A stretch of 44,145 nucleotides of DNA from Candidatus Pacearchaeota archaeon (GTDB lineage Archaea > Nanobdellota > Nanobdellia > UBA10117 > JAFCGI01), in assembly GCA_017608235.1 (NCBI GenBank), contig JAFCGI010000003.1, positions 1 through 44,145 on the forward strand. The letters are read 5' to 3'. The translations under genes and the position numbers were made by a program. The notes under the pieces are model-generated. The model had not been told where the DNA came from, ran no database searches, and saw only the letters and a program-made list of their open reading frames with translations. Within the stretch, counting starts at the first letter, position 1. Each line of letters begins with the position of its first letter. Positions 13,341-35,618 of this stretch are shown here, piece by piece.

Positions 13341-13589
13341 ATGTCATTAATTGGAATTAGAAGTGCTACAATAACTGAAAAAGGTCAAATATCTATCCCT
13401 AAGCAGATAAGAGATATAGAAGGTCTAAAAACAGGGTCTAAAGTAGCAATATTAGCTTTCGATAACCATATTGAAATAAAGTCAATGGAAACTCTTAACA
13501 AAGAAATGGCTACAGCGCTAGCATCTGAAAAAGTATTAGCTAAAGATTGGCTAAGTAAAGAGGAAGATGAAGCATGGAAAACATTGTAA
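13341..13589 (+). CDS. AbrB/MazE-like antitoxin
   Basis: SpoVT/AbrB-fold DNA-binding antitoxin: ITEKGQISIPKQIRDIEGLKTGSKVA is the canonical swapped-hairpin motif, followed by a C-terminal tail (ALASEKVLAKDWLSKEED) expected to wrap the toxin. ATG 13341 is chosen; an in-frame GTG at 13332 lies inside the AGGTGAT Shine-Dalgarno site. The gene overlaps the toxin start by 16 bp. AbrB antitoxins usually repress their own operon, and a TATA box (ATTTTTATATT) lies about 40 bp upstream. Confidence 0.88.
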   Translation: MSLIGIRSATITEKGQISIPKQIRDIEGLKTGSKVAILAFDNHIEIKSMETLNKEMATALASEKVLAKDWLSKEEDEAWKTL

Positions 13590-13906
13590 AAGGCGACATA
13601 ATTGTGGTGCCATTTCCCTTCTCTGATTTAAGCAAGTCAAAGAAGCGTCCAGCGTTAGTTCTTGCAAATCTTATTGGTGATGATTTTATTTTATGCCAAA
13701 TAACAAGTGAAGCCAGAGTAGATCAATATTCTATAATTCTTAAGGATGGTGATTTTAAACAAGGAACTTTAAAACAAATAAGTATGATTCGACCTAATAG
13801 GATATTTACTGCAGATAACTCTATTGTTCTTTACAAAGTTGGAGTTTTGAAAGATTCAAAAATAAAAGAAGTTGAAGAAGAAGTAATAAAAATCTTTCAA
13901 AGTTAA
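13574..13906 (+). CDS. MazF/PemK-like toxin (putative endoribonuclease)
   Basis: A 110-residue MazF/PemK-fold protein: opening KGDIIVVPFPFSDLSKSKKRPALVLA is the family signature, with the arginine/lysine-proline strand and ITSEA segment that form the ribonuclease site. It overlaps its AbrB-like antitoxin by 16 bp, the typical type II arrangement. Cleavage of mRNA is the family activity and is not shown here. Confidence 0.87.
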   Translation: MENIVKGDIIVVPFPFSDLSKSKKRPALVLANLIGDDFILCQITSEARVDQYSIILKDGDFKQGTLKQISMIRPNRIFTADNSIVLYKVGVLKDSKIKEVEEEVIKIFQS

Positions 13907-13962
13907 ACACACTGAGGGCAGGAGTTAGACGGATAGTTCAGCGCCGACAATCTTTATGAAAT
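13900..13962. repeat. Imperfect repeat R2 upstream of the second toxin-antitoxin pair
   Basis: Direct-repeat partner of the copy at 13223-13285, in the same orientation, and again ending about 50 bp before the first start codon of a toxin-antitoxin pair. Its reverse complement reads GTCTAACTCCTGCCCTCAGTG, matching about 16 of 21 positions of the tRNA-Ser(CGA) 3' end. It therefore both separates the two pairs and forms the right border of the first. Confidence 0.7.
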
Positions 13963-14010: not shown

Positions 14011-14259
14011 ATGAAAACAGAAGTATTACATTATCCAAGACTGGATACAATTCTAATGGTGGAAGAAACCATAAAAAAACTAGAAGATTATCCATCAAAA
14101 ATGCAGCTTTGGAAAGCATTACCAAAATCTGTAATGTATGCCACCTTTAATTTAATTCTAGACTATCTAGAAGAGTCTGGAAAAATACTTTTTACTAAAG
14201 ATAAGAAGATAATCTGGATTTTCAACCCAAAACTAATGAAAAATGCTGTAGAAGTATAA
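14011..14259 (+). CDS. Small winged-helix-like protein, putative antitoxin of a RelE-type pair
   Basis: 82 residues, mostly helical with a C-terminal beta pair (KILFTKDKKIIWIFNP), resembling a small winged helix. Its stop codon directly abuts the ATG of a RelE/ParE-like toxin, which is the argument for an antitoxin or regulator role. A TATA-like stretch (TTTATATACTTATATTATATAAC) lies within 35 bp of the start, suggesting a leaderless mRNA. No recognised antitoxin family. Confidence 0.65.
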   Translation: MKTEVLHYPRLDTILMVEETIKKLEDYPSKMQLWKALPKSVMYATFNLILDYLEESGKILFTKDKKIIWIFNPKLMKNAVEV

Positions 14260-14544
14260 ATGGAATTTAAAGTATTCTTTGTTGATTATAAGATAGCATC
14301 AGCATATCAAAAACTAAAAGACGGAACTAGTGAAGATAGAATTCTTTATAGTAATATTAATAAAGCCATAGAAGACTTAAAGAAGGGCCCACAAATTGGA
14401 ATTAGAATTCCAAAGAAATTAATTCCCAAATATTATATTCAAAAATATGAGGTAAATAACTTATGGAAGTATGACCTTCCCGGAGCATGGAGACTTATTT
14501 ATTCAATATCTGGAGATAAAATAGAAATAAGAAGAATTATATAA
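14260..14544 (+). CDS. RelE/ParE-superfamily toxin-like protein
   Basis: 94 residues with the RelE-like ending: DLPGAWRLIYSISGDKIEIRRII, where the central Arg and the final beta strands form the toxin core, preceded by two helices. Start immediately follows the stop of the small partner gene. The fold call rests on the WRLIYSI pattern; ribosome-dependent mRNA cleavage is the family activity and is not certain here. Confidence 0.75.
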   Translation: MEFKVFFVDYKIASAYQKLKDGTSEDRILYSNINKAIEDLKKGPQIGIRIPKKLIPKYYIQKYEVNNLWKYDLPGAWRLIYSISGDKIEIRRII

Positions 14545-27336: not shown

Positions 27337-27714
27337 TTAGAAAAGAAATATCTTGTTATAAATCCACTGCCAGATTTGAGTATACTTTTTGTTATTATAG
27401 ATATCTTCTGTTTCTATTCCTGACTCGGGCTTAAAAATATCTTCTGATTCTGACCTAGACTCAAGACCCTCATTTACTTCACTATCAACTGATCTTTCAA
27501 GAGTTGAAATAAGACTACTATGTGCTTCGTATGATCTTTCTAAAGTGTTAGTTAGTTTTCTTCTTGCTTCTATGTTTTTTCTTACACTTTCTTCAAGATT
27601 ACTTAATGCAATATTTAATTGTGCTTCTTGCTCATCATTAAGAGTGTATTGTGTTGCCTCTTGTCTTGTTTTAGTTTGTTGAATGTATTCTTCTTCTGGA
27701 GCCATAGAATTCAT
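27337..27714 (-). CDS. Hypothetical coiled-coil protein
   Basis: 125 residues, charged and helical, with a repeated LTNTLERS / LISTLERS element around residues 52-75 and an acidic Ser/Glu-rich segment after. No known domain. Upstream (27715-27750) is A/T-rich and promoter-like. Its 3' end is 10 bp from tRNA-Leu. Position beside the Fic locus may or may not be meaningful. Confidence 0.55.
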   Translation of the reverse strand: MNSMAPEEEYIQQTKTRQEATQYTLNDEQEAQLNIALSNLEESVRKNIEARRKLTNTLERSYEAHSSLISTLERSVDSEVNEGLESRSESEDIFKPESGIETEDIYNNKKYTQIWQWIYNKIFLF

Positions 27715-27753
27715 CTAAAAGTAACAAAATATAAATTTATTTATTTATATTAT

Positions 27754-27811
27754 CAAACCTCAACTGCCTCAGTGCAAGACTAGGATCAAGACCAACGCTT
27801 AAGTAGATTCT
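27754..27811. repeat. Imperfect direct repeat R3 (left of fic)
   Basis: About 58 bp matching 28796-28851 in the same orientation with roughly three quarters identity, including exact blocks CAAACCTCAAC and GGATCAAGACC. Ends about 60 bp before the fic start codon. Confidence 0.75.
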
Positions 27812-27821
27812 AATTCTTACA

Positions 27822-27857
27822 GGGGACAATAATAGTAAGATTTATATATGAGTCCCC
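27822..27857. promoter_or_regulatory. fic promoter framed by an inverted repeat
   Basis: GGGGAC (27822-27827) and GTCCCC (27852-27857) are exact inverted repeats 24 bp apart, enclosing a TATA box (TTTATATA, 27841-27848) about 25 bp before the fic ATG. A protein binding both arms would block TFB/TBP access, so an operator is likely by inference. Confidence 0.55.
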
Positions 27858-27870
27858 CCTAACTATACTT

Positions 27871-28794
27871 ATGAGTTATTTAGAAAGCAAAACCATCAAA
27901 GGTAAGAAATATCATTACTTAGTTAAAGAATTGAGGATAGGAAAGCGTAAGAAGAAATTTCGAACATATATTGGCAAGGGAGATAAGACTAAAAAAGAAC
28001 TTAATAAAATAGCCAAAGAGAAAGAATATGTTTTATGTGATAAGATTGATGCGTATTTGAGATCTAAAGACTTCTTTTTTACTTTGCTAACTAAAGAAAC
28101 AATTTCTAAATTAGAAGATATAAGGAAAGACTATAAAGACCTAATAAAAAGATTAAGAAACAAAGATGATTTTTATGAGTGGTTTATAACTAAATTTACG
28201 TACGATAGCAATGCAATTGAAGGTTCTACTTTAAGCGAAACAGAAGTAGGGCTTCTTCTTTTTGAAGATATCGCTCCAGAAGGAAAGAGTCTAAGAGAAA
28301 TACACGAAGCAGAAAATCACAAGGCAGCATTCGATTATCTTTTAGAATATACGAAAGAATTAGATTTGAATTTTATTCTTAAGTTGCATGATTTGCTTAT
28401 GCATAACATTCTTAGAGAGAATTCTGGAGTTCTTAGAAAAGTTCAAGTTTATGTAAGGGGTGCTAAATTTATGCCACCTCCAGCGTTAGAAGTAAGAAAA
28501 AGACTCGCAGAACTTCTTCGATGGTACTATAAAAATAAGAATAAATATCATCCTATTATTTTAGCATCTTATTTTCATACTGAATTTGAGGAAATACATC
28601 CTTTTATTGATGGTAATGGCAGGGTTGGAAGATTATTATTGAATTTTATATTGGTGAAGAGCAAATTTCCCCCAATAGACATTAAAAATTCTAAGAAAAA
28701 AGAGTATTATGATGCTTTAGAATTAGCTCATGACGGTAATATTCGTGCATTCGTAAAATTAGTAGTTAAATATTTACTTAACATAAAATCATAA
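27871..28794 (+). CDS. Fic-domain protein (putative AMP/NMP-transferase)
   Basis: 307 residues with the full Fic motif H243-P-F-I-D-G-N-G-R-V-G-R254, expected to transfer a nucleotide monophosphate to target hydroxyls. An inhibitory-helix motif S113-N-A-I-E117-G118 lies N-terminal to the fold, the class II self-inhibited arrangement, so no separate antitoxin is needed. Residues 1-50 are a basic strand-rich region (KKYHYLVKELRIGKRKKKFRTYIG). Flanked by direct repeats on both sides. Leaderless by TATA spacing. Targets unknown. Confidence 0.92.
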   Translation: MSYLESKTIKGKKYHYLVKELRIGKRKKKFRTYIGKGDKTKKELNKIAKEKEYVLCDKIDAYLRSKDFFFTLLTKETISKLEDIRKDYKDLIKRLRNKDDFYEWFITKFTYDSNAIEGSTLSETEVGLLLFEDIAPEGKSLREIHEAENHKAAFDYLLEYTKELDLNFILKLHDLLMHNILRENSGVLRKVQVYVRGAKFMPPPALEVRKRLAELLRWYYKNKNKYHPIILASYFHTEFEEIHPFIDGNGRVGRLLLNFILVKSKFPPIDIKNSKKKEYYDALELAHDGNIRAFVKLVVKYLLNIKS

Positions 28795-28795
28795 C

Positions 28796-28851
28796 CAAAC
28801 CTCAACCGCCTCAATGCAGAACCTGGATCAAGACCGACCCCAGCTGCATTC
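28796..28851. repeat. Imperfect direct repeat R4 (right of fic)
   Basis: Partner of 27754-27811, starting 2 bp after the fic stop codon. The pair bounds the fic gene almost exactly, as expected of a small insertion cassette. Confidence 0.75.
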
Positions 28852-28857
28852 TGAGGA

Positions 28858-28933
28858 CGAATGGCGAAGAATAGCGCCTATACAGATTTAAATTTTATTT
28901 CTCCATTATATTTCAAGCGAACGGCGAAGAATA
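28858..28933. repeat. Pair of 16-bp direct repeats downstream of fic
   Basis: CGAATGGCGAAGAATA (28858-28873) recurs as CGAACGGCGAAGAATA (28918-28933), one mismatch, 60 bp apart. No gene is visible between fic and 29016; this stretch otherwise holds only R4. Confidence 0.6.
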
Positions 28934-29015: not shown

Positions 29016-29827
29016 ATGTTATTACAAAAAGAAAACATAGTAATTGGTGCACTGCATCTTATGCCTTTAATTGGATATAAAGGTTATACTAGTTATAAAT
29101 CTATATTAGAACAGGCTAAACTATGCTTAAAAGCATTTGGAAATGGTGGTGCTGATGCAGTTATTATTGAAAATAATTACAACCTTCCACATAAGATAAA
29201 AGAAACTCTAGATGTCATAGAAATGATGTCTAAACTAACTAAAGATTTGAATGAAGAATATCTTTATCTTCAGGTGTAAGTTTACTATGGAACGATTTTG
29301 AAGACGCATTTAAAATAGCAAAATATGGCAATGCTAAATTTATTAGAGTACCAGTTTTTGTAGATAGTTTAAAAACAAGTTTTGGGAAAATCTTAGCAGA
29401 CCCAGATAAAGTTCTTAAAGTTAGAAAAGAATTAAATGCAGAAGAAATACTAATACTTGCAGATATACAAACAAAACATGCTAAGCTCTTAGACTCTAGT
29501 AAAACTATTAAAGAGTCTGCACGAGAAGCCAAACAAAAAGGTGCAGATGCAATTATTATTACTGGTAATTGGACCGGTGATGCTCCTAATATACAAGATC
29601 TTAAAGATGCAAGAGCTTCAGTTGGAAAAGATTTTCCAATTTTAGTGAGGAGTGGCGCTGATAAAAATAATGTTAAAGGATTACTTAAATTTGCAAATAG
29701 TGTTATAGTTAGTACTTCTTTGAAAGAAGGAATCGCCATATCTCTAGAAAAAGAAAGAAATATTAAGCCATTTTCAGCTAAGATAGACATCAATAAAGTA
29801 AAGACATTTGTAGCAGAACTTAGATAA
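29016..29827 (+). pseudogene. BtpA-family TIM-barrel protein, frameshifted
   Basis: The first 87 residues (ALHLMPLIGYKGY, GGADAVIIENN) match the start of BtpA/SgcQ proteins. The frame then ends at a TAA (29277-29279) within CAGGTGTAAGT, while a second frame continues without interruption: LLWNDFEDAFKIAKYGNAKFIRVPVF, ILADIQTKHA, GADAIIITGNWTG, ILVRSGA, to a stop at 29827. Removing one GT from the GTGT at the junction restores a continuous ~270-residue protein. Either a recent mutation, a sequencing error, or less likely programmed frameshifting. BtpA is known from photosystem I biogenesis in cyanobacteria; the role in archaea is unclear. Confidence 0.8.
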
Positions 29828-33239: not shown

Positions 33240-35279
33240 TTTATATTCATCAATCAATGATGTTCAAATGCACTAGCCTAGTTTTTTAGGCTGGGAAGAA
33301 GCTGATAATAATGAGGCTATGTATGGAAGTAAAGACGCCTTTTGTGGGATGGCTTGGCTTGGAAAACCGATGAGGGTCGTAGCAAGCTGCGATAAGCTCT
33401 GGCGAGGTGCATGCAGCCTTAGAACCAGAGATTACCTAATCTGATTCAGATCTTCTTCGGAAGATGGTCATTCTATGATCGGGAACGCAGGGAATTGAAA
33501 CATCTTAGTACCTGCAGGAAAAGAAAGCAATAGCGATGCCGTTAGTATAGGCGATTGAAAACGGCAAAGAACAGACTGAATCCTTATAGGCAACTATAAG
33601 GAGATGTGGTTGATTATCGTAATACTTCAATAGGTTTGATGAACTATTCTGGAAAGTTAGGCCTTAGAGGGTGATAGCCCCTTAATTAAGTCTAAAGAAG
33701 TATATTGGTAATATCAAGAGTACCATGCGTTGGAATTCGCATGGGAATATGGGAGGCAGTAACTTCTAATTCTAAATATTTTCCAAGACCGATAGCGTAC
33801 GAGTACCGTGAGGGAACGCTGAAAAGAACTCTTGACAGAGAGTTAAAAGAGCCTGAAAACAAAAGGTTATAGTACGTAGCGGCTTTTCGGAGTTGCTACA
33901 TTCGTTTTGAAAAATGAGCTAGCGAGCTTTTTTCTGTGGCAAGACTAATTCAAAGAGGAGTCTTAGGGAAACCAAATCTCCGCAGCTTCGGCGAGGGAGA
34001 TCATCTTAACCGGTGATATAGTCACAGGGAAAAAACCAGAAGCCTGACGATCTAAGCCAGGGCAAGGTGAAGTCCCCTTAAACAGGGATGGAGGCCTGAA
34101 GAGATACTCAGTACATTGGTTCTCCTGATCTTGGTTTAGGAGTGAAAAGCTAATCGAGTCAGGCAATAGCTGGTTCCTACAAAAATAGGCCGTAGTCTAG
34201 TCTCAGTGGAGCTTACTATTAGTGTAGAGCTACGGATTGGGTATTTAGGGGAAGAAATTCCTCGGTGTCCTGTCCAACTCCAAATTTAATAGTAGTGTAG
34301 ATACTGGGAAACAGGGATGGGGGATAAGCTTCTATTCCGAGAGGGGAACAACCCAGAGAAAGGTTAAGGCCCCAAAATGTTGACTAAGTGTACTTAAGAT
34401 CTCATTTACCCAAAACAGCGGGGAGGTTGGCTTAGAAGCAGCCACCCTCTAAGGAAAGCGTAACAGCTCACCCGCCGAGGTAACTGATATCGCAAATGGA
34501 CGGGACTAAGTCAATTGCCGATACCTTTCCCTAGAAATCTATGGATTTCTATGGGGTATGTAGGCGCTCTGCAAGGGCAGAAGTTTTCTCGTGAGAGGAA
34601 ATGGACCTTGTAGGGATGTGAATGCTAGCATTAGTAGCACCTAAGTGGAGTGAGAAACTCCACCGTCTTAAGAGCCAGGTTTTCTCAGCACTACTCGTTA
34701 GCTGAGAGTTAGTCGGTCCTAAGTTTGCTCCTTAAGTGGATCAAGCGAAAGGGAAATCTGTTAATATTCAGATACCATAAAAATGCACGTGGCAACACAA
34801 GTTAACTTCTGACGTTTTGGGGTATACCAAGCACCATCATCGTGGTGTTTAAGCATATAAGTCTGAGGAGTCTCGTAATGAGGAGAACCAGATGAAAGTG
34901 CGAATAGCTCATTGAGTTTGGTAGATCCCTTGAACCCTTGAAAAAGAAGTTGAATGTTTTTTTATGACCGTACCCAGAACCAGCACAGGTGGCTCTGGCC
35001 TAGAAAGCCAAGACGTGAGAGGACAATCCATCAAAGGGAATTCGGCAAATTAGCCCCGTATCTTCGGTATAAGGGGTCCCAGCGGCTGTGATCTTTATGG
35101 TTGCAATTGCTGGGCGCAGTGACTAGAGGGATCCGACTGTTTAATAAAAACTTAACTAGCTGCAATACTGAAAAGTTTAGTACAGCTGGTGACTTCTGCC
35201 CAGTGTCAGTACCTGAAAGTTCAGTTCAATGGACCTAAGGGCTGGTAAACGGCGGAGGTAACTGTGACCTTCTTAAGGT

Positions 35280-35618
35280 AAGCACTGAAGTTGCCTTAAT
35301 AAAATCTGGCTATATGCTGGGAAGTCTGAGTATCATATACTAGGATACTTCCAAAGTGATTTGGAAGCGGCCCCTAAAAAAGTATATGTGCAGATAATCA
35401 GCAGGAAAGACTTCTAAAATTTAGAAGAATCCTCAGAGACTATACGCCAGACGTATTTTTCCAAAAAGAAGAATGCGAAGATATAGTCCGACCTGCATAG
35501 CGATATGCAGAAGTTATCTGAAAAGATAATTCGCCATCTAAATTAGATGGTTAGTACCACAAGCAAATATTTTTGATCAATTTTTTCCTAAAAAGTTTGT
35601 GGGAAAGTAACAGACGTG
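35280..35618 (+). mobile_element. Group I intron in 23S rRNA (no ORF)
   Basis: Inserted in the universal CTTAAGGT|AGCGAAAT segment of domain IV, near E. coli position 1931. P1 pairs exon TTAAGGT (35273-35279) with intron GCCTTAA (35293-35299), leaving the diagnostic U.G at the splice site. P2 is CTTCCAAA-GTGA-TTTGGAAG (35348-35367) with a GNRA loop. P7 pairs GACTATA (35438-35444) with TATAGTC (35482-35488). The last base is G (35618). 339 nt, with no endonuclease gene. Confidence 0.9.

What the first reader, a model, noticed from the sequence alone, without database searches (positions are those of the whole stretch)
27754..28851. Fic gene bounded by imperfect direct repeats
R3 and R4 bracket the fic gene within 2-60 bp on each side, as a single-gene cassette would be. 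R3/R4 share a short TGCC-TCAGTG core with the reverse complement of R2 from the toxin island, hinting at one repeat family linked to toxin-like genes at two loci 14 kb apart.
Basis: partly seen in the sequence, partly recalled or inferred. Interest (0 to 1): 0.58.

Follow-up and report, generated by a model that had tools for sequence, protein, structure and literature searches.

The report
Toxin-gene cassette between duplicated host sequence
In this archaeon a single toxin-like gene sits between two copies of one short host sequence, and the same arrangement, with a different sequence each time, surrounds a notable minority of toxin genes in related archaea, as if bare toxin genes slip into genomes by duplicating the spot they land in.

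Summary
R3 (27754-27796) and R4 (28796-28838) are 43-bp direct repeats, 84% identical, bracketing the Fic ORF (27871-28794) and found nowhere else in the genome. They are not one repeat family with R1/R2. A parallel pair, R1/R2, brackets the MazEF operon; these two pairs are the strongest self-matches in the window. In 918 kb of the same genome, unrelated pairs also bracket RelBE (tRNA 3' part plus trailer) and an MNT/PDC-M05 module (duplicated tctA 3' end). Elsewhere, 14 of 76 testable Fic genes (10 by a stricter reading) and 5 of 24 ParE genes (4 stricter) carry such brackets, against 12 of 327 other genes in the Fic loci, about half of those 12 being toxin-module genes. The repeats are pieces of the landing site: gene 3' ends, tRNA ends, promoters. 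Best reading: bare toxin cassettes enter by insertion with long target duplication, published for restriction-modification genes. The enzyme is unknown, no empty site could be tested for this Fic, and brackets are rare around toxins in the nearest relatives (2 of 41).

The parts
27754..27796 (+). R3, upstream copy of the direct repeat (48 bp if started at 27749); lies about 40 bp upstream of the start of the divergent 125-aa ORF 27337-27714 (-)
27822..27857 (+). putative Fic promoter: GGGGAC (27822-27827) and GTCCCC (27852-27857) as an inverted repeat around the TATA-like TTTATATATG (27841-27850)
   Evidence: read; similar inverted-repeat promoters are visible upstream of homologues; function inferred
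27871..28794 (+). Fic ORF, 307 aa; HPFIDGNGR active-site motif and SNAIEG aligned with the FICD TVAIEG motif
   Evidence: motif meaning recalled
28796..28838 (+). R4, downstream copy of the direct repeat, starting 2 bp after the last base of the Fic stop codon
13222..13279 (+). R1, upstream copy of an unrelated direct repeat (59-column alignment, 81% with R2)
13341..13906 (+). MazE-like (13341-13589) and MazF/PemK-like (13574-13906) toxin-antitoxin operon
13899..13956 (+). R2, downstream copy; contains the MazF stop codon

Best explanation
The Fic gene with its own promoter is a self-contained toxin cassette that was inserted as bare DNA between ORF 27337-27714 and the BtpA gene. The insertion duplicated about 45 bp of the landing site, leaving one copy on each side (R3, R4), and the copies have since drifted to 81-84% identity. 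This is one case of a wider pattern: in this genome and in other DPANN archaea, solo Fic genes and toxin-antitoxin operons enter genomes by insertion with long target duplication (28 to about 290 bp). The duplicated sequence is whatever lay at the site: the 3' end of a gene or tRNA, or a promoter and 5' end. The duplication probably arises when a wide staggered break is filled in around captured DNA, and the toxin's addictive or defensive effect then keeps the insert. Shown: the repeats, their uniqueness, their host-site origin in the cases where it can be read, and the enrichment. Inferred: insertion as the cause here, staggered-break repair, and toxin activity.
For: R3/R4 and R1/R2 are the two best self-matches of the window and both bracket toxin modules. 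In 918 kb of this genome, 11 non-coding direct pairs reach 44 bits or more and no inverted pair does; four of the 11 bracket toxin modules. Origin can be read in several: the tctA 3' end with mismatches spread evenly over codon positions, 16/15/18 of 73 each, i.e. neutral decay of one copy; tRNA-Gly 3' part plus trailer. Fic genes: 14 of 76 bracketed against 12 of 327 neighbours (Fisher p 3e-5; strict 10 of 76, p 0.003). ParE: 5 of 24 (p 0.003). Of the 12 neighbour hits, Pfam names toxin-antitoxin proteins in 5 (L144 twice, L184, L187 HepT, L207), with L207's partner antitoxin matching DUF7557 and L142 PIN-like by eye. Host-site copies: gmk, PGM-like, epimerase, HAD and AspRS-like 3' ends, tRNA-Ser 3' end, tRNA-Val end plus flank, a tRNA promoter, a promoter plus 8 codons (gene names by eye). 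Congeners G011 and G013 lack RelBE upstream of GlyRS where G012 has RelBE between two copies of the promoter region. Published precedent for restriction-modification genes: long, variable target duplications of the order of 100 bp (PMC3874152, passages).
Against: No empty site exists for the window Fic in the genomes held, and the origin of the R3/R4 sequence is unknown. Five Fic homologues in the order have no bracket, including the 66% identical one; over all toxin families in the order only 2 of 41 testable loci outside this genome reach the threshold, one of them promoter-like. Some brackets have other readings: operator copies (L146, L169, L182), tRNA paralogues (L151), paralogous genes (L332). 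The eight non-toxin brackets among the 12 hits of the per-gene scan were not all followed up, and one, GDT1, is an insertion of the same kind without a toxin.
Confidence: 0.66

Rival explanations
1. Site-specific integration: the repeats are attL/attR of a minimal integrative element moved by a tyrosine recombinase acting in trans, or of a larger integrated element that lost everything but its toxin module.
For: Several copies are classic attachment sites: an intact tRNA-Ser with a 27-nt copy of its 3' end beyond Fic (L162), gene 3' ends (L168, L181), tRNA-Gly in this genome.
Against: Other copies are promoters or 5' ends (L153, L154, G012 GlyRS, GDT1). Related Fic genes L167 and L168 sit at unrelated sites with unrelated repeats. 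tRNA genes are not clearly closer to Fic than to other genes (8 of 79 against 26 of 397). The inserts hold only the toxin module. Whether the genome encodes an integrase elsewhere was not tested.
Confidence: 0.16
2. Homologous recombination: a small circle carrying the toxin gene plus a stretch of host DNA integrates by a single crossover at that stretch, leaving direct repeats.
For: A bracketed gene can pop out as such a circle; a circle model was proposed for transposed Arabidopsis genes flanked by repeats (PMC2869330, passages).
Against: It does not explain how toxin genes first joined different host segments, and related Fic genes carry different repeats.
Confidence: 0.1
3. The repeats are functional elements (operators, promoters or structured RNAs) placed on both sides of the toxin gene, with no insertion involved.
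For: At L146, L169, L182 and L183 the copies look like the Fic promoter palindrome itself; in G005 the copy is a promoter-like motif with a third partial match in the locus; R4 folds well as RNA (z -4.4).
Against: R3 does not fold better than shuffles (z -0.06) and no Rfam family fits either copy. R3/R4 lie outside the promoter palindrome. Most other copies are fragments of host genes or tRNAs.
Confidence: 0.08

Closest known systems
Insertion with long target duplication (Nobusato et al. 2000, restriction-modification genes of Helicobacter pylori; original not held, seen only through citing papers PMC1643837, PMC3874152, PMC3031569)
   Same: A selfish or addictive gene unit inserted without a transposase, bounded by long, variable duplications (of the order of 100 bp) of the target.
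   Different: Here Fic and type II toxin-antitoxin modules, mostly in DPANN archaea, as small single-gene or two-gene units; those papers speak of restriction-modification genes.
Integron gene cassettes, reported in archaea (PMC9668308, search listing only)
   Same: Compact cassettes carrying toxin modules, sometimes with a repeat right after the stop codon.
   Different: No attC core pair in R1-R4; repeats are host gene pieces; mostly not arrays.
Integrative elements at tRNA or gene 3' ends
   Same: Some copies are tRNA or gene 3' ends duplicated on the far side.
   Different: Others are promoters or 5' ends, and no integrase lies between the repeats.
FICD-type Fic AMP transferases
   Same: HPFIDGNGR active site and an inhibitory-type motif N-terminal to it.
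   Different: Extra N-terminal part of about 100 aa without a Pfam match; activity untested.

Membership tests
Insertion with long target duplication | Insert flanked by long direct repeats of variable length | tested here: met
   43-48 bp here; 28 to about 290 bp in other cases
Insertion with long target duplication | Repeat is a duplication of the target, single copy at an empty site | tested here: inconclusive
   No same-family genome for the window Fic. G012 RelBE: congeners lack RelBE upstream of GlyRS, and the GlyRS-side copy aligns with G011's single promoter better than the far copy does (scores 53 against 31), but not in G013 (38 against 44), and further upstream synteny differs
Insertion with long target duplication | No transposase or integrase in the insert | tested here: met
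   Fic is the only ORF of substance between R3 and R4; the others there are at most 35 aa
Integron cassette | attC site (RYYYAAC ... GTTRRRY) at cassette ends | tested here: not met
   No pair in R1-R4 on either strand (consensus recalled)
tRNA or gene 3'-end integrative element | Repeat equals a tRNA or gene 3' end | tested here: not met
   R3/R4 give no consistent tRNA match (one score of 19 against a shuffle maximum of 17) and no Rfam tRNA hit; no gene 3' end recognised at either copy
Type III toxin-antitoxin system | Tandem RNA-antitoxin repeats upstream of the toxin | tested here: not met
   One copy on each side, not tandem
Fic family | Fic domain with HxFx(D/E)GNGR | tested here: met
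   PF02661 E 2.4e-22, HPFIDGNGR aligned with FICD
Self-inhibited (class II) Fic | Inhibitory (S/T)xxxE(G/N) motif N-terminal to the Fic core | tested here: met
   SNAIEG aligned with TVAIEG of FICD (class rule recalled; activity not testable)

The most novel reading that the evidence does not exclude
Bare toxin genes are themselves the mobile unit in DPANN archaea: promoter plus toxin ORFs is captured at wide staggered breaks at almost any gene boundary, with no dedicated recombinase, and the 3' boundary of the cassette is the toxin's stop codon, which the landing site sometimes supplies. Start of the downstream copy relative to the last base of the toxin stop: ParE L313 +11, L317 -1, L327 -3, L336 +6; Fic within 11 bp at 5 of 14; window Fic +2 and MazF -7.
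Probability: 0.25. Interest if true: 0.82.

Novelty: new variant of a known kind. Interest (0 to 1): 0.6.

Why it matters
How chromosomal toxin modules spread without a mobile element around them is an old open question. A readable scar, a unique duplication of the landing site, would let insertions be found, dated by repeat identity and compared with empty sites in any genome, and would extend a mode of movement known for restriction-modification genes to toxin and Fic genes of archaea that have almost no experimental genetics.

Tried and rejected
One repeat family for R1-R4: rejected. R3/R4 as a dispersed genome repeat: rejected, two copies only. R3/R4 as decayed tRNA 3' ends or a known RNA: not supported. 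R3/R4 as a leftover coding segment (reverse-strand peptide VGLDP..LR.LRF): no further copy in 918 kb, and mismatches not biased to third positions (by eye). attC sites: absent. tRNA-targeted insertion: no clear excess. Pattern scan of viral contigs with R3/R4: 0 hits. The 80 viral Fic loci were fetched but not tested for brackets.

Caveats on counts. Own genome, by Pfam families only (ParE 1 of 1, PemK 1 of 2, Fic 1 of 1, HEPN 0 of 1, small PIN 0 of 1): 3 of 6 are bracketed. The MNT module was found because of its bracket, so it is not an unbiased count, and the YoeB-like pair at 14011-14544 has none. Order outside this genome: ParE 2 of 13, PemK 0 of 2, HEPN 0 of 7, small PIN 0 of 14, Fic 0 of 5; 6 truncated loci were dropped (L085, L089, L094, L099, L104, L105), and the housekeeping ATPase-PIN loci (L115-L125) were left out; 80 loci, 4 too short; 30 loci held of the many hits, 6 truncated, 24 tested. 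Inverted-repeat controls at the same score: 3 of 76, 1 of 327, 0 of 24, 2 of 787. The strict Fic count drops L146, L169, L182 (operator copies) and L151 (tRNA paralogues). first misplaced the flanks of truncated loci; one search replaces it. In one search the per-gene scan of this genome gave 12 of 787 genes, four of them genes of three toxin modules; 2 of 85 neighbours in the ParE loci, which are L327's own partner gene and an ORF overlapping L336's module. A claim that toxin brackets of this kind are unpublished rests only; one paper reports direct repeats flanking a toxin-antitoxin pair in mycoplasmas (PMC8562856, passages).

Full report
What is there. The window is archaeal (archaeal rRNAs); its order contains the genome of Candidatus Pacearchaeota archaeon Meg22_46_Bin_225, judged from a Fic-bearing contig of 45,041 bases that appears both as G009 and as a named record. 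R3 and R4 are real direct repeats (43 bp, 84%; 48 bp, 81%) on the two sides of a 307-aa Fic ORF and are the only two copies in the 1.2-Mb genome. R4 starts 2 bp after the last base of the stop codon; R3 ends 74 bp before the start codon. Between R3 and the ORF lies a TATA-like box inside the inverted repeat GGGGAC...GTCCCC, probably an autoregulated promoter.

The second pair. An all-against-all comparison of the window gives two top hits: R1/R2 (59 columns, 81%), bracketing a MazE-MazF operon, and R3/R4. Of 34 gene or operon intervals tested, these two are the only ones whose flank similarity no shuffle reaches.

The rest of the genome. I scanned 918,098 bases (42 contigs, one highly repetitive contig left out of the scan) for direct repeats 250-2,500 bp apart. 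Eleven non-coding pairs reach 44 bits; no inverted pair does. Four bracket toxin modules: MazEF, Fic, a ParE-type module and an MNT-type nucleotidyltransferase pair matching PADLOC candidates PDC-M05A/B. The rest are a GDT1-like transporter gene (two pairs), three pairs on contigs that look viral, and two inside long open coding repeats. In the MNT case the repeat is the last part of the convergent tctA gene; its mismatches fall evenly on codon positions (16, 15, 18 of 73 each), as expected if one copy decays without constraint. In the ParE case it is the 3' part of tRNA-Gly plus 52 bp of trailer. So the repeats are duplicated landing-site DNA.

Relatives. 80 loci encoding Fic relatives were fetched from genome contigs, mostly archaeal with some bacterial. 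Of 76 testable, 14 have direct repeats scoring 44 or more, against 3 inverted. Among 327 other genes in the same loci, 12 do. Fisher p is 3e-5, or 0.003 with four ambiguous Fic cases removed. Of the 12 neighbour hits about half are toxin-module genes: ParE three times, an antitoxin, HepT, a DUF7557 partner, and one PIN-like protein by eye; the other five are an AAA/DUF234 ATPase, two HTH-like or unknown ORFs at L158, and two unknown ORFs. For ParE in the phylum, 163 of 279 genomes have a match; of 30 loci held, 24 were testable, and 5 are bracketed (4 if paralogous genes at L332 are excluded), none by inverted repeats. Against this, in the order itself outside this genome only 2 of 41 testable toxin loci are bracketed. 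The pattern is enriched but far from universal; that old insertions have lost their scars is a possible reason, not tested.

What the repeats are. L162: intact tRNA-Ser and a copy of its 3' end. L181: the 3' end of guanylate kinase. L168: the 3' end of a phosphoglycerate-mutase-like gene. L189 and L197: 3' ends of small ORFs. L167: the end of tRNA-Val plus flank, 137 bp, identical. L153: a tRNA promoter. L154: a promoter plus eight codons. L313, L317, L327, L336: 3' ends of convergent genes. Names of these host genes are by eye from the translations. In G012, RelBE lies between two copies of a promoter-like stretch next to GlyRS; congeners G011 and G013 have no RelBE there, and the GlyRS-side copy resembles the single promoter of G011, though not that of G013.

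How it probably works. A self-contained unit (promoter plus toxin-antitoxin pair, or a Fic whose inhibitory motif is built in) is captured at a break with long staggered ends; filling in the ends duplicates the site. Because the unit is addictive or protective it is kept while one repeat copy decays. The unit contains no recombinase. Site-specific integration explains the 3'-end cases but not promoters and 5' ends, nor related Fic genes at unrelated sites. The enzymatic step is inference.

What is known. Insertion with long target duplication was described for restriction-modification genes; a review states that some insert with long and variable target duplications of the order of 100 bp and places toxin-antitoxin modules on plasmids, prophages and integrons as well as in regular chromosomal positions (PMC3874152, passages; also PMC1643837 and PMC3031569, passages). 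The original 2000 paper was seen only as a citation, and the 2010 survey is not held. The present case therefore works like, and by most tested features belongs to, that kind; the empty-site feature remains open for the window Fic. The extension to Fic and toxin-antitoxin modules in archaea was not found in the searches made, apart from a mention of direct repeats around one mycoplasma pair.

Noticed in passing
window 35250-35510: A group I intron (Rfam RF00028, 83.9 bits) lies inside the archaeal 23S rRNA gene.
   Followed up: no
window 29016-29793: The BtpA-family gene downstream of the cassette appears frameshifted: an 87-aa ORF matching the start of BtpA ends at 29279 and related coding seems to continue in another frame.
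   Followed up: no
window 14011-14544: A second toxin-antitoxin-like pair (YoeB-like by weak Pfam match) directly follows R2 and has no bracket of its own.
   Followed up: partly
L144 1651-3485: A RelBE cassette and a Fic cassette sit head to tail, each between its own repeats, which overlap by a few bases, followed by an ORF pair that resembles the MNT module by eye: an incipient cassette array.
   Followed up: partly
L146, L169, L182, L183: The Fic promoter palindrome (e.g. TGTCCACA..TATA..TGTGGACA) occurs both before Fic and directly after its stop codon; the downstream copy may be an operator or promoter for the next gene.
   Followed up: no
window 28796-28880: R4 with its right flank folds into a strong RNA hairpin (z -4.4), R3 does not (z -0.06).
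   Followed up: partly
G000 contig C19 155488-156660: A GDT1-like transporter gene is also bracketed, by partial copies of the 5' end of the neighbouring secreted-protein gene; the same kind of scar without a toxin.
   Followed up: partly
G000 contig C22 29281-29597: On a virus-like contig a 91-aa ORF lies between two identical 32-bp repeats that span the start of each following gene.
   Followed up: no
G000 contig C30: A 51-kb contig made largely of kilobase-scale repeated coding sequence.
   Followed up: no
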